A stretch of 42,487 nucleotides of DNA from Candidatus Adiutrix sp. Its GTDB lineage: Bacteria; Desulfobacterota; Desulfarculia; Adiutricales; Adiutricaceae. The notes under the pieces were generated by a model. That model did no database searches, was not told the origin of the DNA, and was given only the letters and a program-made list of their open reading frames with translations. The stretch lies in assembly GCA_031261565.1 (NCBI GenBank), contig JAISJK010000133.1:1-42487 (forward strand), read 5' to 3'. Shown piece after piece: positions 1-34,786 of the stretch. The position numbers and the translations under genes were made by a program. Numbering within the stretch: the first letter of the stretch is position 1; the number at the start of each line of letters is the position of its first letter.

Positions 1-99
1 AAGCTATCTCTCAACTTGCCGCAAAAATAATATCCAACCTTCCGAGGCCCTCAATCTTCTCTTCGATGGAAAATTGCCAGATTTTATCTACGCATAGAA

Positions 100-243
100 T
101 TATCCGGCTGAATAGTTACGAATTATCATCCCGGTGTCTTTGTCGAGCTCATACTTGGTTTTGCCGCCCTTTGAGATTTCGATAACCGCGACAAAGTCCT
201 CGCTCTGGATTCTGTTGGGTGAAATGCCATGCCAAATGTTCAT
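100..243 (-). pseudogene. ppa: Truncated family I inorganic pyrophosphatase (N-terminal fragment)
   Basis: The reading frame from the ATG at 243 gives 47 residues. They begin MNIWHGISPNRI, followed by FVAVIEISKGGKTKYELDKDTGM, which is the first beta-strand region of soluble family I pyrophosphatases. Known family members continue with a DRxLYTS-type segment and the aspartate-rich metal site and reach about 175-220 residues. Here the match stops after the MII residues, four or five unrelated residues follow, and a stop comes at 100-102. None of the three frames down to base 1 resumes the family sequence. An AAAGGA ribosome binding site lies about 9 bases before the ATG, so the start region is intact. 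I read it as a deletion or rearrangement remnant. A short functional peptide is possible but unlikely, because every catalytic residue is absent. Confidence 0.75.
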
Positions 244-346
244 AACGGTCAATCCTTTCAGTTTAGGCATTGTATCACAGGCGGGCGGCAATTGCCAAAG
301 GCCCGGCCAAAGGCCAAAGCGGCCGCTGGCCCCAGGGCGGTCTTGG

Positions 347-355
347 TGGTATAAT
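347..355 (+). promoter_or_regulatory. Extended -10 promoter of ycjX-ycjF
   Basis: TGGTATAAT is a consensus -10 hexamer preceded by the TGn extension. The -35 region is poor (TGGCCC at about 17 bases), as is usual for extended -10 promoters. It would start transcription near 362, about 35 bases before the GTG of ycjX. Confidence 0.5.
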
Positions 356-396
356 CAAGCCCATCGACCGCGATAGATAACGGGAGGGCGGGGGCC

Positions 397-1833
397 GTGA
401 CTTATAATTTTAAAAAATATCTTGAAAAGGCTATCACCGCTGCGGCGGGAACTGCTGAAAAGCTGATGACGGCCAACCTGAAAGTGGCCGTTACGGGTTT
501 GGCCTCATCCGGCAAAAGCGTGTTTATTCTATCCCTGCTTCAGCATCTCAGGTATTTCGATGAGCATCGCTTCAATATCCAAAAGGGGGGAACCACCCTC
601 AAAATTCAGGATTTCCAGGAGTTGCCTGTTCCGGCCGGCTTTGAAAAGTTCCCGCTTAACGCCATGCGCGCCCGTATCCTCGCGGCCCAGGAATGCAAAT
701 GGCCCCACAAGACCAGAGACTCCTATCGCTACCGGGCCTCGTTCAAATACACCGGCAAGCTGAGGTTCAATGATAAAATAGAGATCGATCTGCTGGATTT
801 CCCCGGGGATCGGCTGGCCGATGTCGATGTGGCCCGCTATGATAATTACGCCGCCTGGTCTGACCGCCTCATTGAAATATTGACCGGTGATGAAACGACT
901 GAACTATACGCAGCCGATAACGCTGATAGGGAAAAAATCAAAGTAAAACGCCTTGTTGAGCTTTATCTGGCTAAAGTAAGGGCCCTGGACGCCCCGCCGG
1001 GCTGGCTGGCGGCCTACAAAGAAATGATGACCTTATTCCTGCATAATTTCAGTCACTTCATCACTCCATCCAGTTTCGCGCTGGATTGTGAAAATCTATC
1101 CGTGTTTTCGGCCCAAGATAGTCAGAATCAGGGTCGTGACCGAGTATGTGGATTATCCGGCCGCGAATTTGCGCCCCTGCCGCCGGATGTCAGAGCCAAA
1201 TATCCGGCTCTGGCAGCTGAATGGGCCGACAACTACGCGGTCTATCGTGACCAGGTCGTGCTAAGATTATTCAACTATTTAAATGAATGCGGCCAGTTGA
1301 TTTTGATGGTGGATATTCCCTTCACTCTGGCTGGCGGAGTCCAGCGTTACAATGCTTTAATATCCCTTCTGGAGTCCTGGGCTCAGATACTTAAACCATC
1401 TAAATGGTATAACCCTTTCACCCATTTAAAAAAATTCGCTATCGTGGGCACCAAAAAAGATTTAACTGTCCACGAAGATGAAGACAATATGAAGTCCCTC
1501 CTTAACCAGATTCAAAAGATTGTGGAGAATAAGCAGCCGAATATCAAGTGCGCCTCATTTTGCGTGTCAGCTTGGGTCAGCACGGAAGAAATAGAAGGCC
1601 AGCGGCAGCTAAAAGGTCGGCGCGCCAAATATAAGCCCGGGGAAACAGCGACTTTAGACGCGGAGGGCTATGACGTCTGGCCGGTCAACCCGCCAGTTCC
1701 CTGGGAATGGCCGGACAACTGGGAGGCCGGGAGTTTCAGCTACCCGCGCACCCTGCCCAGCCCCCTTTTAAACGCAGCCAAACCCCCGAAGCAATCCGGG
1801 ATGCCGGATGTATTCCGTTTTATCGTTGATTAA
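397..1833 (+). CDS. ycjX: YcjX-family P-loop GTPase
   Basis: 478 residues from a GTG start preceded by GGGAGG at 381-386. The P-loop GLASSGKS is at residues 34-41. A second nucleotide-site motif of the form DFPGDRLAD is at 134-142, corresponding to the DYPGE motif of the family. A TKKD guanine-specificity motif is near 352-355. These three motifs and the length match the DUF463/YcjX family, dynamin-like GTPases that E. coli expresses with the phage-shock response and that are thought to act on the inner membrane in stress. The protein has no membrane segment itself. The next gene encodes the usual membrane partner YcjF, starting 20 bases later, so the two are surely co-transcribed. The exact function is unknown in any organism. 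Confidence 0.88.
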   Translation: MTYNFKKYLEKAITAAAGTAEKLMTANLKVAVTGLASSGKSVFILSLLQHLRYFDEHRFNIQKGGTTLKIQDFQELPVPAGFEKFPLNAMRARILAAQECKWPHKTRDSYRYRASFKYTGKLRFNDKIEIDLLDFPGDRLADVDVARYDNYAAWSDRLIEILTGDETTELYAADNADREKIKVKRLVELYLAKVRALDAPPGWLAAYKEMMTLFLHNFSHFITPSSFALDCENLSVFSAQDSQNQGRDRVCGLSGREFAPLPPDVRAKYPALAAEWADNYAVYRDQVVLRLFNYLNECGQLILMVDIPFTLAGGVQRYNALISLLESWAQILKPSKWYNPFTHLKKFAIVGTKKDLTVHEDEDNMKSLLNQIQKIVENKQPNIKCASFCVSAWVSTEEIEGQRQLKGRRAKYKPGETATLDAEGYDVWPVNPPVPWEWPDNWEAGSFSYPRTLPSPLLNAAKPPKQSGMPDVFRFIVD

Positions 1834-1853
1834 CCCGTATAGAGGTGATTAAA

Positions 1854-3023
1854 ATGTCTGAAGCCGTGTTAAACAATTACCCCGACGATGATGAATACGA
1901 TGGGGGTTGCCCGGATTTCGCCCCCATAGAAGCCAAATCTCCACCAGCCGCGTCGAGCATATCTGAAAAGTCCGCCCCGGCCAGGCGTTCCCTAATAGTC
2001 GAAACAGTGGTGGAGATCCATCGTGAAGACGAGTGCGTGGTGAATATCCCCGATTTTCCGCCCCTAACCGAGGCCCATATTCGGCCGGCAGATCCAAGGA
2101 GTCGGCCGAGCTGGCCTGATGACGGGCCGAATCCCAGGGCCAGATATGACCAGTTGCGGCTTAACTGGATATTTTTAGGCGCCTTGGCGATCGTAACGGC
2201 CTTTTTCGGATTCTACCTGTTTGCCCAGACCATCAACACCGTGGCCCTGGCTCAAACAATGCCGACCTGGGGGAAGATGCTGTTTTTGCCTCCGCTGGCC
2301 TTGTGCGGCATGGTCGTTATTGCCGTTTTGATCGCTTTCGTCTGGTCCTGGTATCGGTTAAACAGCTTTATCCAGGTAAATTTAGCCGAGATTAACCAGT
2401 TGGCCACGCGGCGTCAGACCCGCCAGGAGGCTTTCCACCACTCCAAAGAAGCCCAAAAACGACTTCGGGCTTACTTGGAGAGCTACCCCATACCCTCGGC
2501 GGATGACCCCCAAAGCTCCCTAAGCCGCGAGAATATCGCCAATTTGGTCAAAACAAGAAATCGGCTGCTGGCCGAAACCACCGATGCCGGAAGCTGGATC
2601 GACAAATTCAGCGGCGAGTTCCTGGGGCTTCTGGATGCCATTGCCTACTCCGGGATTAAACAACAGGCGCTTAAAGCCGGGGTGGCCGCGATGGCTTCGC
2701 CCCTGCCCCTGCTGGATTCCTTTCTTATTCTTGGTCTGTCATTGGATATGTTGCGGCAATTGTGCAAGATCTATAATATTCGCGTCGGAGGGCTGGCTCT
2801 GCCCATTCTTTTGACCAAAGTAATTCGTAACGCCTTTATCGCCGACATTTCCATGCAGGTTACGGAAGAGGCCGCCCATTACCTCAGCGAAGAGCTGGGC
2901 AGCAGCTTATTAAGCTGGGTGGGGCCCAAGCTGGCTGAAGGCAGCATCAACGGCATTTTCATGCTCAGGCTTGGCCGTTCCACCCAGCGGCTGCTTCGGC
3001 CGGTGGCCGGCACCCACAGTTGA
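1854..3023 (+). CDS. ycjF: YcjF-family membrane protein (DUF697)
   Basis: 389 residues. The ATG at 1854 is chosen because AGAGGTGA at 1841-1848 sits at good spacing; an in-frame GTG at 1845 overlaps that site. The first ~95 residues are acidic and proline-rich, probably disordered and cytoplasmic. Two membrane helices follow, around residues 102-125 and 137-163. After a charged helical linker comes a conserved C-terminal domain with a LPLLDSFLILGLSLDMLRQL segment and an IYNI motif, which matches the DUF697 domain of YcjF. The partner GTPase is immediately upstream. YcjF probably anchors it to the inner membrane; this is inferred from gene pairing and topology. Confidence 0.85.
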   Translation: MSEAVLNNYPDDDEYDGGCPDFAPIEAKSPPAASSISEKSAPARRSLIVETVVEIHREDECVVNIPDFPPLTEAHIRPADPRSRPSWPDDGPNPRARYDQLRLNWIFLGALAIVTAFFGFYLFAQTINTVALAQTMPTWGKMLFLPPLALCGMVVIAVLIAFVWSWYRLNSFIQVNLAEINQLATRRQTRQEAFHHSKEAQKRLRAYLESYPIPSADDPQSSLSRENIANLVKTRNRLLAETTDAGSWIDKFSGEFLGLLDAIAYSGIKQQALKAGVAAMASPLPLLDSFLILGLSLDMLRQLCKIYNIRVGGLALPILLTKVIRNAFIADISMQVTEEAAHYLSEELGSSLLSWVGPKLAEGSINGIFMLRLGRSTQRLLRPVAGTHS

Positions 3024-3048
3024 ACGGAAGGCATAAGGGGGAGGGAAG

Positions 3049-3612
3049 ATGGCTAAAAAGAAGCCGACCCAGGAGGAGTTCCCGCTGGAGCGGGCTTTCA
3101 CTTTCGTTGAATCAGGCCCGGTCATTTTAGTTTCCACCTGGCGCAGGCGCAAGCGCAACCTCATGACCGTCAGTTGCCACGCCTCCCTCGGCTTTGAGCC
3201 CACTATTGGCCTGGTCTTGGGGCCCTGGAATCACAGCTATGATGCTCTGGTGGAAACCGGCGAGTGCGTCATCGCCATTCCGCCGGCCAGTTTGATGGAG
3301 GCTGTGGTGGAAATAGGCAACTGCTCGGGCGCTGAGGTTGACAAGTTCAAGAGATTCGGCCTGACCCCGCTCCCGGCCTCTGAAGTGAAAGCGCCGCTGG
3401 TCGCTGAATGTCTGCGCAATCTTGAATGCCGGGTGGTCGATCGGGAGATGGCCTCCCGCCATCTGTTTATCCTTGAGGGCGTCAAAGCCTGGCATAATCC
3501 GCTGCTCCCGGATCAGCGCACTTTCCACGCCAACGGAGACGGAACTTTTGTGATTGATGGCGAAACCATAAACCTGCGCCATAAAATGACCAAGTGGCAA
3601 GACTGCATCTAA
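3049..3612 (+). CDS. Flavin reductase-like FMN-binding split-barrel protein
   Basis: 187 residues, start supported by GGGGGAGGGAAG before the ATG. The opening segment (GPVILVSTWRRRKRNLMTVSCHASLGFEPT) has the P-V-x-L-V-S-T ... N-x-M-T-x-S pattern of the flavin reductase-like/flavoredoxin family, which binds FMN in a split beta-barrel. It continues with the E-x-C-V-I-A-I-P and G-x-x-x-G-x-E-V-D-K-F features. Such proteins reduce flavins with NAD(P)H or act as FMN redox carriers in anaerobes; the electron donor cannot be read from sequence. It lies 25 bases after ycjF and may be read through from it. Its stop is only 6 bases from the convergent galE stop. Confidence 0.82.
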   Translation: MAKKKPTQEEFPLERAFTFVESGPVILVSTWRRRKRNLMTVSCHASLGFEPTIGLVLGPWNHSYDALVETGECVIAIPPASLMEAVVEIGNCSGAEVDKFKRFGLTPLPASEVKAPLVAECLRNLECRVVDREMASRHLFILEGVKAWHNPLLPDQRTFHANGDGTFVIDGETINLRHKMTKWQDCI

Positions 3613-3618
3613 GTTGGG

Positions 3619-4614
3619 TCAAGAATCATTGCGGGGCGCCTTTCGGCCCTGATGCCAGCGCCAAGCCGTGGTCACAATGGTGGTCAGGTCAGCCAGGGAT
3701 GGTTGCCAGCCCAGCTCGGAGATAGCCCTGGCCGCGCTGCCCACCAGAATCGGCGGGTCGCCGGGCCGCCGGGCCGAGATGACCGCCCGGATGGCCCGCC
3801 CGGTCACTTTTTCGGCGCACTCAATGACCTCCCGGACGGAATACCCCTGGCCATTGCCCAGATTAAAAGCCGCGCTGGCCTGATTTTGCAGGAGATATTC
3901 CAGGGCCAGGATATGGGCCTCAGCCAGATCGCTGACATGAATATAATCGCGCACGCAGGTGCCATCCGGGGTGTCGTAATCATCGCCAAAAATGCTCAGG
4001 GCCGCCCGGCGGCCGGCGGCGACCTCCAGAATAATGGGGATCAGGTGGGTCTCGGGCTGATGATCTTCGCCTATTTCACCGCCAGGGTCGGCCCCGGCGG
4101 CGTTAAAATAGCGCAGGGCCACATACCGAAGCTGGTAAGCCGCCGCAAAATCGCTCAAAATCCTCTCCACCATCAGCTTGGTCTGGCCATAGGGGTTGAC
4201 CGGGGCTTGCCGGTGATCCTCGGCGAGGGGCACGGAGAGGGGCAGACCATAGGTGGCCGCGCTGGAAGAAAAAATAAAATAGCGGCAGTCAAATTCTCGC
4301 ATGATATTCAGGAGATTAAGAGTCGCGGCCACATTGTTGGCATAATATTTGTCCGGGGCGGCCATTGACTCCCCCACCGAAGTCAGGCCGGCGAAGTGCA
4401 TGACCGCCTCTATCCGGTAATGCTGGAAAATGAGCCGGAGCTGAGAGGGGTCAGCCAGCTCGCCCAGGGCGAAATCGCCCCACTTGACGGCCTCTCGGTG
4501 GCCGTTCAGGAGATTGTCATAGACGACCGTGGGGTAGCCGCGCCGGGCCAGCCCCTGGTTGACGTGGCTGCCTATGTAGCCGGCGCCGCCGACCACCAGC
4601 ACTGTTGGCTTCAT
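3619..4614 (-). CDS. galE: UDP-glucose 4-epimerase
   Basis: 331 residues from the ATG at 4614, which places VLVVGGAGYIGSH at residues 5-17 as in the family (E. coli GalE is 338). It interconverts UDP-glucose and UDP-galactose with tightly bound NAD, feeding LPS and exopolysaccharide synthesis. Visible motifs are the Rossmann GGAGYIG, the catalytic serine region SSSAATYG, the YGQTK tyrosine-lysine pair, the ALRYFNAAGADP segment and VRDYIHVSDLAEAH. The start is not certain: an in-frame ATG at 4623 lies 14 bases after AGAGGTG (4638-4644), and an ATG at 4668 lies right at the expected transcription start. It is monocistronic as far as can be seen. Confidence 0.92.
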   Translation of the reverse strand: MKPTVLVVGGAGYIGSHVNQGLARRGYPTVVYDNLLNGHREAVKWGDFALGELADPSQLRLIFQHYRIEAVMHFAGLTSVGESMAAPDKYYANNVAATLNLLNIMREFDCRYFIFSSSAATYGLPLSVPLAEDHRQAPVNPYGQTKLMVERILSDFAAAYQLRYVALRYFNAAGADPGGEIGEDHQPETHLIPIILEVAAGRRAALSIFGDDYDTPDGTCVRDYIHVSDLAEAHILALEYLLQNQASAAFNLGNGQGYSVREVIECAEKVTGRAIRAVISARRPGDPPILVGSAARAISELGWQPSLADLTTIVTTAWRWHQGRKAPRNDS

Positions 4615-4674
4615 GGGATCCATCCAAAATTGTTGGGCACCTCTTTCCCGCAACTGTTGTCGCGCCATGTTCCC

Positions 4675-4680
4675 ATTATA
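4675..4680 (-). promoter_or_regulatory. Putative galE-proximal -10 box
   Basis: On the minus strand this reads TATAAT. It would start transcription near 4668, giving a leader of about 45-55 bases to the ATG at 4623 or 4614. No good -35 hexamer is seen 16-18 bases upstream. Confidence 0.35.
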
Positions 4681-4749
4681 TTTTTTACCCCGGCAGTTTA
4701 ATTTTGAAAGAATACCACACCGGGAAAAGCGGGGCAACCGCATATTCAA

Positions 4750-4778
4750 TTTATCAATTTTAATACGTTTGACGTCTA
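4750..4778 (-). promoter_or_regulatory. Putative distal galE promoter (TAGACG-N17-GATAAA)
   Basis: The minus strand carries TAGACG at 4778-4773 and GATAAA at 4755-4750 with exactly 17 bases between them, four of six consensus positions in each. It overlaps the palindrome at 4759-4788, which would cover its -35 and spacer. Confidence 0.3.
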
Positions 4779-4788
4779 GCGTATTAAA
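4759..4788. repeat. 30-bp interrupted palindrome between recO and galE
   Basis: TTTAATACG (4759-4767) and CGTATTAAA (4780-4788) are perfect inverted arms, and the central GACGTC (4771-4776) is itself a palindrome on the same centre. Thirteen of fifteen positions pair. The shape suggests a binding site for a dimeric regulator rather than an RNA terminator: the arms are AT-rich and no T-run follows. Confidence 0.55.
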
Positions 4789-4817
4789 GTTATCATAGAC
4801 GGCCGCGCCGTGCGCTT

Positions 4818-5597
4818 TTACAAGTAGAAAAGCCGGCGGGCTGTTTTTAAGGCTTTCAGGGGGTGCCCGAGATGGTGCTCGGCCAGTTTTTCAAAGAAAA
4901 GCTCGGCCTCGGCCAGATCGCCTGGGGAGAGAGGCGGGAGAGGCTGGCCGGCTGGCCGGGGCGTCAGGCGGAACAGCAGATTTTTGGACACCGGGCGGCT
5001 GCGGGGCGTCCTGGAGGCCAGGCAGTCGGGGCAGTAAAGCCCGCCGGCGGCCGGATCCCAGTGCCAGCCGGCGGCCACTGTCGGGGCGGCCCCACAGACC
5101 AGACAACCTGACAGGCGGGGGCCGAAACCGGCCAGCTCCAGGTATTTTAAAGCGAAATCAAGGGAGACCAGCCGGGCCATCCGCTCGTCAGTAACCAGGG
5201 CCAGACGGCCCAGGTGGCGCACCAGCAGGTTAAAGCTGGCCTCGGCCGGGTTGCCGGGGGCTTCAAAGCCCCGCACCAGCTCCAGGGCAAAGGCGGCCAG
5301 ACACTGAGATACCGGGTCAGGGGTCAGGCGGCGAGCTTTGGGGTTTTCCTCGCCGTTTTCCACAAAGGCTAGCGTGGAGGTGGGCTTGATGGTAAAATCA
5401 TACCAGGCGCTGACCCCCGGGGACAATAACCCGCCGCCAAAGCGCCGGAGGCTGCGCCGGCCATAGCGGGCCATGGCGCTGACCAGGCCCAGCTCGCGGG
5501 TCAAAAATGTTATAATCAGGTCGGCCTCGCCGTAATTAGCCCTGGCCAGCACCACTGCGGCCAGTCTCCGCTGCCCGCCCCGACTTCCTCCGCCCAC
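4818..5597 (-). CDS. recO: DNA repair protein RecO
   Basis: 259 residues from a GTG start, supported by GGAGG at 5603-5607 five bases upstream. RecO anneals SSB-coated DNA and loads RecA with RecR in gap repair. The N-terminal OB-fold segment shows the family pattern of a repeated valine/leucine strand followed by YGEADLIITFLTRELG. A zinc site is present as C165-x2-C168 and C189-x2-C192. The C-terminal part is helical. The gene is divergent from ftsH with about 95 bases between their starts, so both promoters must lie in that short stretch. Confidence 0.88.
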   Translation of the reverse strand: MGGGSRGGQRRLAAVVLARANYGEADLIITFLTRELGLVSAMARYGRRSLRRFGGGLLSPGVSAWYDFTIKPTSTLAFVENGEENPKARRLTPDPVSQCLAAFALELVRGFEAPGNPAEASFNLLVRHLGRLALVTDERMARLVSLDFALKYLELAGFGPRLSGCLVCGAAPTVAAGWHWDPAAGGLYCPDCLASRTPRSRPVSKNLLFRLTPRPAGQPLPPLSPGDLAEAELFFEKLAEHHLGHPLKALKTARRLFYL

Positions 5598-5692
5598 CCC
5601 GGCCTCCGTTATTCCCTAAAAATAGGTTGAAAAAAAACGCGAATTGTCGTAAAACTTTCAGGTTAGACTTAATTTTTATAAGAGAGGCTGTT

Positions 5693-32961: not shown

Positions 32962-33014
32962 GATTTTGCCCCTTTAGCCAGAGTTTTAAGCTATGTTAGC
33001 CATCACGGCCTGAT

Positions 33015-33034
33015 AAAAGCAAGATTAAGGCCAA
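33015..33034 (-). promoter_or_regulatory. Sigma-54 promoter of fliFGHI
   Basis: The minus strand reads TTGGCCTTAATCTTGCTTTT. GG (33032-33031) and GC (33020-33019) are exactly ten bases apart, and the -12 element TTGCT is full consensus. Transcription would begin near 33007, with a ~45-base leader. Sigma-54 control of mid-class flagellar genes is well known in deltaproteobacteria and vibrios. Confidence 0.72.
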
Positions 33035-33095
33035 TATTCGTCAAACCTCAAGTGATGTTATACTATAAATGGCCCCGGCCCCGCAAGCCGCAGAA

Positions 33096-33121
33096 AAAAA
33101 CCCGCTGGCCGGCGGGTTTTT
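33096..33121 (-). terminator. Intrinsic terminator downstream of lpxC
   Basis: AAAAACCCGC and GCGGGTTTTT form a perfect ten-base stem around a six-base loop. On the minus strand the stem leads into a run of seven T. It separates lpxC from the fliF promoter and, having A and T tracts on both sides, could work in both directions. Confidence 0.9.
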
Positions 33122-33147
33122 CGAGGAGTTAAAAGTGATCTTTCAGG

Positions 33148-34140
33148 TCATAAACCGATGGAGGGCAGAGCCTCTTCCAGGGTCAGGGTCAGGCGGGGCA
33201 GGAGAGACCGGGCGTCAGTGGGCAAATCATCGGAGGGCTGATCATAGGTGGGCCTATGAACCGATTGGCCCTTTTCAGCCCCGGGCCGGGTCATTTCCAG
33301 GAGGCCCGGCTGGGCCAGGGCCTCGATCAGGAAGCGGCGGTTGAGCTCATGCCCCGGCTTATGGAGGACAAACTGGCCGATGACCGGAACGCCGGCCATG
33401 GCCAAATCGCCAATGAAATCCAGAATTTTGTGACGGACAAACTCGTCGTTATAGCGCAAGCCCTCGGGGTTTAAGATGCCGTCGTCGCCCACCACCACCG
33501 CGTTGGCCAGGGAGCCGCCCAGAGCCAGACCCTGCCGGTGCATCATCTCCACGTCTTTAAGCTGGCAAAAGGTGCGGGAGCGGCTGATTTCCCTGATGAA
33601 AGCCGGCTCGGACTCAACATAGTAAAAACAGTGGCGGCCAATGGCCCCGCCGAAATCAATGTGGGCCTCCACCGAGAAGCGGCTGGCCGGGCGCACCGAG
33701 ATGGACTTGTCGCCGGAAGCGACCTGATACGGCCGGGTAACCCGGTAATGACCCCGGGGCGCGTTTTGCTCCACCAGGCCGGCCTCGGAGAGGAGGCGCA
33801 CCCACTCGACGGCCGAGCCGTCAAAGACGGGCAATTCCGGGCCGTCCACCTCCACCAGGAGGTTGTCCACCCCCAGGGCCAGCAGGGTGGCCATCAGATG
33901 CTCGACCGTGCTGACGCTGTTGTCGCCCCGCCCCAAAGTGGTGGCCAGGGTGGTGCTGGTAACATTGCCGGATTTGGCCGGGAGGGCCGGCGAGCCGGGC
34001 CGGTCAGAGCGCTTAAAGGCGATGCCCCGGTTGGCCGGGGCCGGCTTGAGCTTCACATTAATATCGCGGCCGCTGTGGAGGCCGAGGCCCCGGGTGGCTG
34101 TCTCTTTAATAATGGTTTTCTGTCTGATCATGACCGCCAT
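33148..34140 (-). CDS. lpxC: UDP-3-O-acyl-N-acetylglucosamine deacetylase LpxC
   Basis: 330 residues; AGGAG lies about eight bases before the ATG at 34140. LpxC performs the committed step of lipid A synthesis, removing the acetyl group with a zinc ion. Family features: QKTIIKE-x-GLGLHSG near the N-terminus, the zinc histidine in STVEHLMATL, DNLLVEVDGPELPVFDGSA, and the second metal cluster HKILDFIGDLAMAG with GHELNRRFL. About 25 residues beyond the usual C-terminus are poorly conserved. It stands alone between a hairpin (upstream) and a strong terminator, with its own sigma-54 promoter. Confidence 0.95.
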   Translation of the reverse strand: MAVMIRQKTIIKETATRGLGLHSGRDINVKLKPAPANRGIAFKRSDRPGSPALPAKSGNVTSTTLATTLGRGDNSVSTVEHLMATLLALGVDNLLVEVDGPELPVFDGSAVEWVRLLSEAGLVEQNAPRGHYRVTRPYQVASGDKSISVRPASRFSVEAHIDFGGAIGRHCFYYVESEPAFIREISRSRTFCQLKDVEMMHRQGLALGGSLANAVVVGDDGILNPEGLRYNDEFVRHKILDFIGDLAMAGVPVIGQFVLHKPGHELNRRFLIEALAQPGLLEMTRPGAEKGQSVHRPTYDQPSDDLPTDARSLLPRLTLTLEEALPSIGL

Positions 34141-34177
34141 GGCTCACTCCTGTTCGGCTTTTAGCTTCTAAACAAAT

Positions 34178-34196
34178 AAGCAAAAGATGTGCCATA
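34178..34196 (-). promoter_or_regulatory. Consensus sigma-54 promoter of lpxC
   Basis: The minus strand carries TGGCAC (34194-34189), five bases, then TTGCT (34183-34179), matching TGGCAC-N5-TTGCW at every defined core position. GG and GC are ten bases apart. Transcription would begin near 34168, leaving a ~27-base leader that still includes the AGGAG ribosome site. No competing -35/-10 pair is evident in this region. Confidence 0.78.
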
Positions 34197-34276
34197 GACC
34201 AGTCAGGATCGGGCCGGTTAAAACATCCATCATTTGAAATAGCTAAGCGGGGTGCCGGCCACGCCTCCGGCCCGGG

Positions 34277-34316
34277 CCATAGCCCCCTGTGGCCAAATCG
34301 CCACAGGGGGCTATGG
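34277..34316. terminator. 17-bp perfect inverted repeat after ybeY
   Basis: CCATAGCCCCCTGTGGC (34277-34293) and its exact complement (34300-34316) enclose a six-base loop, 14 bases after the ybeY stop. It probably ends or stabilises the che-to-ybeY transcript; no T-run follows on the minus strand. Confidence 0.65.
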
Positions 34317-34330
34317 TTAGAAAGCCACAC

Positions 34331-34786
34331 TCAGATATCCAGCAGTTGCCAGAGGCGATCGGTTTCGGCCTCCTGGCGGGCCGCCTCGGCCGGGCCCCGC
34401 TCATGGTCATAGCCGAGCAGGTGCAAAAGGCCGTGAATCAGATAAAAAAAGAGCATCTCCTCAGCGGTGTAGCCCAAGGGGGGGGCTTCCCGGATAATGG
34501 TGTCGGCGGAGAGGACAATATCGCCCAGCACCCGGGGCGCGCCCCTTATCTCCAGCGTGGGCCAGCCTTCCCCATTCTCCTCCAGAGCGAAGGCCAGCAC
34601 ATTGGTGGGAGTGTCCACGCCCCGGTACTCGCGGTTAATCCGGCGGATTTCCGCATCGCCCACCACGCTCACCGAGACCTCGGCTCCGGTTAAATCCAGA
34701 ATCTTGAGTAGCCTGACCAGGCGGCGGCGGAACTTAGCGCGGTCAAGCAGCAGCGCTTTTTGGCGATTCGACAGGTGGACGGCCAC
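34331..34786 (-). CDS. ybeY: Endoribonuclease YbeY
   Basis: 151 residues from a GTG with AAAGGAAG upstream, overlapping the pgpH end by 44 bases. YbeY matures the 16S rRNA 3' end and takes part in ribosome quality control. The zinc site H-x3-H-x5-H is complete in HGLLHLLGYDH, and the NREYRGVDTPTNVLAFAL strand is characteristic. The gene order phoH (ybeZ)-pgpH-ybeY is the common one in bacteria that possess PgpH. Confidence 0.95.
   Translation of the reverse strand: MAVHLSNRQKALLLDRAKFRRRLVRLLKILDLTGAEVSVSVVGDAEIRRINREYRGVDTPTNVLAFALEENGEGWPTLEIRGAPRVLGDIVLSADTIIREAPPLGYTAEEMLFFYLIHGLLHLLGYDHERGPAEAARQEAETDRLWQLLDI

What the first reader, a model, noticed from the sequence alone, without database searches (positions are those of the whole stretch)
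34178..34196. lpxC stands behind a perfect-core sigma-54 promoter
The minus strand reads TGGCAC-N5-TTGCT, 27 bases or so before the lpxC ribosome site region, and lpxC is otherwise a lone gene closed by a strong terminator. LpxC is usually a housekeeping gene under sigma-70, and its dose is set by proteolysis. Activator-dependent sigma-54 control would tie lipid A synthesis to the same regime that drives the adjacent flagellar operon, perhaps matching membrane growth to sheath, pole or flagellum building. The motif is seen; the coupling is inference.
Basis: partly seen in the sequence, partly recalled or inferred. Interest (0 to 1): 0.65.

Follow-up and report, generated by a model that had tools for sequence, protein, structure and literature searches.

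The report
Sigma-54 enhancer promoter drives lpxC
The gene for the committed step of lipid A (endotoxin) synthesis has an activator-dependent sigma-54 promoter and a matching upstream enhancer site; both are conserved through most of this bacterial phylum and point to one dedicated two-component regulator, of which a single example (in Desulfovibrio) was known.

Summary
The motif is real. TGGCACATCTTTTGCT lies at 34194..34179 (-), 54 bp before the lpxC ATG. It is conserved: a sense-strand -24/-12 site precedes lpxC in 29 of 29 relatives and 81 of 106 loci sampled across the phylum, against 0 antisense and 0 reversed matches and 1.6% of other genes in the same loci. An unbiased motif search finds this palindrome in about 93% of 108 sigma-54/lpxC upstream regions, often as tandem copies two or three helical turns apart, as for an enhancer. 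It occurs once, exactly, in the window's genome. The likely activator is an NtrX-like regulator (contig C119). Its orthologs follow lpxC and an NtrY-like kinase in many relatives, and in Desulfovibrionaceae some follow a REC-HD-GYP gene, the published arrangement of DVU2934, whose single mapped target in D. vulgaris is lpxC. So sigma-54 control of lpxC is not new in itself. New here are its phylum-wide spread, the enhancer motif, and the NtrYX-lpxC linkage. The proposed coupling to flagella is not supported. Binding and transcription were not tested.

The parts
33148..34140 (-). lpxC, UDP-3-O-acyl-GlcNAc deacetylase, 330 aa
   Evidence: TIGR00325 equivalog over its cut-off, 2.5e-86; Pfam LpxC 2e-96
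34179..34194 (-). sigma-54 -24/-12 promoter TGGCAC-ATCTT-TTGCT; predicted start about 34168
   Evidence: exact match; conserved 29/29 and 81/106, controls 0
34288..34305 (-). enhancer (UAS) palindrome TGTGGC-GATTTG-GCCACA, 111 bp upstream of the -24 element
   Evidence: de novo motif; only exact copy in the genome; best window score 15.2, next 7.1
34312..34329 (-). weaker second UAS copy TGTGGCTTTCTAACCATA, offset 24 bp, just after the ybeY stop
   Evidence: score 6.0; second sites at offsets 22-24 and 29-33 in 50/88 loci against 5.4 expected
34277..34316 (.). longer inverted repeat (17-bp arms, loop of 6) around the main UAS, in this genome only among those compared; may also end ybeY transcripts
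   Evidence: seen in the sequence; flanks in relatives differ
33094..33119 (-). terminator-like hairpin with T7 after lpxC
   Evidence: seen in the sequence; not listed by the scan
33018..33033 (-). separate -24/-12 site TGGCCTTAATCTTGCT upstream of fliF; not part of the lpxC unit

Best explanation
lpxC is transcribed by sigma-54 RNA polymerase from 34194..34179. An NtrX-like enhancer-binding protein (own genome C119:3004-4383, REC-AAA-HTH with an intact GAFTGA) binds the tandem palindromes at 34305..34288 and 34329..34312, loops to the promoter and opens it. A membrane NtrY-like kinase (C128:11884-14055) probably phosphorylates it in response to an unknown envelope signal, so lipid A synthesis is set by activated transcription of its committed enzyme. 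Shown by sequence and comparison: promoter, enhancer motif, their joint conservation, and linkage of lpxC with ntrY-ntrX in relatives. Inferred: that this NtrX binds this palindrome, that it activates, that NtrY is its kinase, and the signal.
For: Sigma-54 site before lpxC in 29/29 relatives and 81/106 phylum loci, controls 0; 76% against 1.6% of other genes in the rest of the phylum, and site plus dyad 24 against 0. EM from random starts gives TGTGGC-N6-GCCACA with fitted occupancy 0.93; 94/108 reach score 6 against 1.8 in shuffles; log-likelihood gain 585 against 52-64 for shuffled sets. Tandem second sites in 50/88 against 5.4. Most loci with neither a strong nor a weak promoter site also lack the dyad. 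The NtrX ortholog is in 40/40 relatives. It lies about 3.3-4 kb downstream of lpxC on the same strand in 33 of 80 larger phylum loci, and in G037, G039, G040, G041, G043, G047-G050 at 3-7 kb, with an NtrY-like kinase between. Own NtrX, lpxC-linked NtrX and Desulfovibrionaceae NtrX form one clade, 100/100, without the own paralogs. In Desulfovibrionaceae some orthologs follow a REC-HD-GYP gene, as DVU2933-DVU2934 do; DVU2934's single mapped target is lpxC (PMC3333781; PMC4641369).
Against: No binding or expression data for this organism. In the window's family ntrX and ntrY are unlinked from lpxC. DVU2934's own sequence and motif could not be read, so the identity rests on best hit, clade and synteny. 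About ten lpxC-ntrX-linked loci have no recognisable sigma-54 site or dyad, so the rule is not universal. Myxococcota lpxC genes have the promoter but no clear dyad. NtrX scores below the NtrX equivalog cut-off, 515 against 600 bits.
Confidence: 0.85

Rival explanations
1. The sigma-54 promoter and palindrome are real, but a different enhancer-binding protein (one of about 11 others in the genome) uses them, and the NtrYX-lpxC linkage reflects something else.
For: The window genome has 12 strong and 1 weak Sigma54_activat matches; ntrX is unlinked from lpxC in the window's family.
Against: Among own EBPs, the NtrX-like one is the best match for every lpxC-linked EBP on the same strand about 3.3-4 kb downstream of lpxC; it is kept in 40/40 relatives; DVU2934's single target is lpxC (PMC3333781).
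Confidence: 0.1
2. lpxC has a sigma-70 promoter or read-through from ybeY as its main supply, and the sigma-54 promoter only adds to it under some condition.
For: LpxC is usually essential, and sigma-54-only supply would make rpoN and its activator essential; the ybeY gene lies just upstream on the same strand.
Against: No sigma-70-like site in 33000-34400 (a crude scan); a 40-bp inverted repeat lies between ybeY and lpxC; the sigma-54 site and UAS are far more conserved than expected for an accessory promoter.
Confidence: 0.25
3. One reading: lpxC and the adjacent flagellar operon are driven by one regulator to match membrane growth to flagellum building.
For: Both have -24/-12 sites and adjoin here; several flagellar genes have exact sites genome-wide.
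Against: The enhancer palindrome is only at lpxC in the window and exact only there in the genome; lpxC-fliF adjacency found in only one other same-genus locus; different activators are known for the two in D. vulgaris (DVU1063 and DVU2934; PMC4641369).
Confidence: 0.04
4. Chance motif.
For: Short degenerate motif.
Against: Conservation with zero control matches and 585 against about 60 log-likelihood for the enhancer.
Confidence: 0.01

Closest known systems
DVU2934 -> lpxC (DVU2917) in Desulfovibrio vulgaris Hildenborough (Rajeev 2011, PMC3333781; Kazakov 2015, PMC4641369)
   Same: NtrC-type sigma-54 response regulator whose single mapped target is lpxC; orthologs of the own NtrX in Desulfovibrionaceae share the HD-GYP neighbour
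   Different: That work reported its motif upstream of lpxC only in two other Desulfovibrio; here one palindrome and promoter are shown across most of the phylum, with an NtrY-like kinase and lpxC-ntrYX linkage
NtrYX control of lpxC in Rhodobacter and Caulobacter (PMC7240162; review PMC12444477)
   Same: NtrYX-type two-component system affects lpxC transcription
   Different: There the effect is repressive; in Rhodobacter no NtrX site was found upstream of lpxC, so it is considered indirect there, and both regulons are broad. Here the arrangement predicts direct, sigma-54-dependent, dedicated activation
FtsH/LapB/YejM proteolysis of E. coli LpxC (PMC12444477)
   Same: Sets the amount of LpxC, the committed enzyme
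   Different: Control of protein degradation rather than of transcription
Sigma-54 as controller of the bacterial exterior (Francke 2011, PMC3162934)
   Same: General proposal that sigma-54 governs envelope building
   Different: lpxC is not mentioned in that paper's text

Membership tests
sigma-54-dependent promoter | GG at -24 and GC at -12 with 10-nt spacing, close to TGGCAC-N5-TTGCW | tested here: met
   exact match; conserved
sigma-54-dependent promoter | rpoN present in the genome | tested here: met
   PF04552 at C40, 4.7e-61
sigma-54-dependent promoter | upstream enhancer sites for an activator | tested here: met
   palindrome 111 bp upstream, tandem copy
sigma-54-dependent promoter | transcription lost without rpoN | not testable with these tools
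   needs RNA data or a mutant
NtrX-type enhancer-binding protein | REC + Sigma54_activat + Fis-type HTH, GAFTGA intact | tested here: met
   Pfam domains; GAFTGA in the translation
NtrX-type enhancer-binding protein | passes the NCBI NtrX equivalog cut-off | tested here: not met
   best family NF051870 but 515.4 against 600 bits; hence called NtrX-like
NtrX-type enhancer-binding protein | paired with a membrane NtrY kinase | tested here: inconclusive
   39% full-length homolog at C128, adjacent to ntrX in relatives but not here
DVU2934-type regulator of lpxC | orthologous regulator | tested here: met
   clade 100/100; HD-GYP synteny in four Desulfovibrionaceae loci; DVU2934 itself not in hand
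DVU2934-type regulator of lpxC | binds upstream of lpxC | not testable with these tools
   site predicted only

The most novel reading that the evidence does not exclude
Throughout most of this phylum, and in some Nitrospirota, the rate of lipid A synthesis is set by activated transcription of lpxC through a dedicated NtrYX-sigma-54 circuit with a single genomic target, instead of or alongside proteolysis of LpxC.
Probability: 0.5. Interest if true: 0.75.

Novelty: new member of a known kind. Interest (0 to 1): 0.62.

Why it matters
LpxC is the committed and best-studied control point of endotoxin synthesis and a drug target. A 2025 review knows transcriptional control of lpxC only as broad NtrYX and ChvGI effects in two alphaproteobacteria and does not mention sigma-54 control or Desulfovibrio. 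A dedicated sigma-54/NtrX circuit conserved over a phylum gives a clear alternative way to set lipid A dose. It ties the little-understood NtrYX system to a defined target, and supplies an exact binding site and promoter that can be tested in culturable sulfate reducers.

Tried and rejected
Chance: rejected by conservation and zero controls. Flagellar coupling: adjacency not conserved, enhancer not shared. Counting the dyad with loose consensus matching gave a noisy picture, so an unbiased EM was used, then checked on shuffled sequences and on a set thinned for similarity. One-mismatch dyads in the genome are at background level (4 against 7 control), so only the exact copy was counted. Rfam found nothing in the three loci tried. 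Seven genomes of one Desulfovibrionaceae genus (g83) gave no LpxC match; I take this as a miss of the tool's first look, not absence, and did not use it. Association of the dyad with Myxococcota lpxC was looked for and not found.

Full report
Observation. The minus strand reads TGGCACATCTTTTGCT at 34194..34179, an exact -24/-12 core, 54 bp before the ATG of lpxC at 34140. lpxC is certain: TIGR00325 over its cut-off and Pfam LpxC. By itself a single 11-base match is weak evidence, since looser matches in the window are no more frequent than in shuffles. The genome as a whole does use such sites: 18 exact copies against none for the reversed pattern, several in front of flagellar, pilin-like and TRAP-transporter-like genes, and rpoN is present.

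Conservation. I located lpxC in relatives and across the phylum, fetched upstream DNA and scored a GG-N10-GC core plus flanking consensus. All 29 relatives with enough sequence (genus, family and more distant members of the class) and 81 of 106 phylum loci have a sense-strand site within 200 bp of the start; none has one antisense or in reversed orientation. Other genes in the same loci have such sites at 1.6% in the rest of the phylum, and 8.6% in the small class-level set.

The missing half: an enhancer. Reading the upstream regions side by side showed a dyad about 100 bp above the promoter. An expectation-maximisation search for an 18-bp palindrome, started from 150 random positions, converged on TGTGGC-N6-GCCACA with a fitted occupancy of 0.93 in 108 regions; 94 score at least 6 against 1.8 in shuffles. 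The gain in log-likelihood is 585, against 52-64 for shuffled sets, and 545 on a set thinned to 99 for similarity. Half of the loci have a second copy, clustered at offsets of 22-24 or 29-33 bp, two or three helical turns (50/88 against 5.4 expected). This is the anatomy of an enhancer bound by a sigma-54 activator. In the window the main copy is at 34305..34288 and a weaker copy at 34329..34312, just after the ybeY stop. The exact palindrome occurs once in this genome. In 247 genomes of the phylum the exact form occurs about 45 times; in nine genomes (G000, G004, G044, G047, G152, G177, G186, G209, G269) it lies shortly upstream of lpxC and is the only exact copy in the genome. Of 25 phylum loci with no strong promoter site, eight have a dyad-like sequence, seven of these with a weaker promoter-like site at a suitable distance, and most of the others have neither, so the two elements come and go together.

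The activator. Twelve proteins with strong Sigma54_activat matches exist in the genome. When these were compared with the phylum lpxC loci, one of them, the NtrX-like regulator at C119:3004-4383, was the best match for every EBP lying about 3.3-4 kb downstream of lpxC on the same strand, in 33 of 80 larger loci and six named ones (the named ones reach 5 kb). There the order is lpxC, sometimes a DUF4390 gene, an NtrY-like kinase (HAMP, PAS, HisKA), and ntrX. The same linkage, at 3-7 kb, is seen in the window's own order and class: G037, G039, G040, G041, G043 and G047-G050. In the window's family the regulator has moved next to rapZ, PTS genes and rimI, but it is kept in all 40 relatives searched, reduced genomes included; an NtrY-like kinase (39% identity) is at C128. 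A tree places own NtrX, lpxC-linked NtrX and Desulfovibrionaceae NtrX in one clade (100/100) apart from the ten own paralogs used (paralogs of other genomes were not included).

Link to experiment. In D. vulgaris, DVU2934, an NtrC-type regulator with GAFTGA in one operon with a REC-HD-GYP gene (DVU2933), has lpxC as its single target by DAP-chip, with a motif validated by gel shift (PMC3333781; PMC4641369). Orthologs of the own NtrX in several Desulfovibrionaceae follow a REC-HD-GYP gene. I therefore take NtrX and DVU2934 as the same regulator; DVU2934's own sequence and motif letters were not available. The 2011 authors saw their motif at lpxC in only two other Desulfovibrio and noted that Syntrophobacter has lpxC next to the ortholog operon without the motif.

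Interpretation. The most likely mechanism is that NtrY senses an envelope state, NtrX binds the tandem palindromes and opens the sigma-54 promoter of lpxC. Alphaproteobacterial NtrYX also influences lpxC, but negatively; in Rhodobacter without a binding site at lpxC, and with broad regulons (PMC7240162; PMC12444477).

Limits. All of this is sequence comparison. About ten loci have lpxC linked to ntrX but no recognisable promoter or dyad. Some Nitrospirota have both elements (L119, L138) and Myxococcota have the promoter without the dyad. A second, sigma-70 supply of lpxC is not excluded; the scan that found none is crude. Organism names are not given for the genome set. L065 (Desulfarculales UBA696) is among the nearest named LpxC matches, and the length of G042's single contig, 3,655,731 bp, matches what I recall of Desulfarculus baarsii; this placement is from memory and was not checked.

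Noticed in passing
L004 about 1501-1640 (+) and L009 about 1380-1516 (-), own contigs C39 and C88: Two exact -24/-12 sites are followed by nearly the same roughly 100-nt sequence ending in a GAAACCGAGACT...AGTCTCGGTTTC hairpin and T-run: a possible pair of sigma-54-dependent small RNAs. No Rfam match.
   Followed up: partly
L005, L007, L012, L014 (own contigs C54, C76, C102, C109, near the contig starts): A repeated TGGCACGGATATTGCT is followed in three of the four (L007, L012, L014) by long CT-dinucleotide runs of different length close to contig ends; possibly a dispersed repeat or variable promoters that broke the assembly.
   Followed up: no
L252 (own C119) 80-5614: In the window's family the NtrX-like regulator sits after rapZ, PTS EIIA/EIIB/EIIC and rimI and before a YihY-like membrane protein gene.
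   Followed up: partly
L066, L069, L075, L079: Myxococcota lpxC genes have strong sigma-54-like sites 105-120 bp before the start but no clear copy of the dyad; a different activator may act there.
   Followed up: partly
window 34277-34316: In this genome the enhancer palindrome is extended to a 40-bp inverted repeat with 17-bp arms between ybeY and lpxC; relatives keep only the 18-bp core. It may double as an end for ybeY transcripts.
   Followed up: partly
L211, L212, L218, L224, L228, L230, L237, L242, L248, L251: lpxC linked to an NtrX-like gene but without a recognisable sigma-54 site or dyad at lpxC; the regulator may act differently in these lineages.
   Followed up: no
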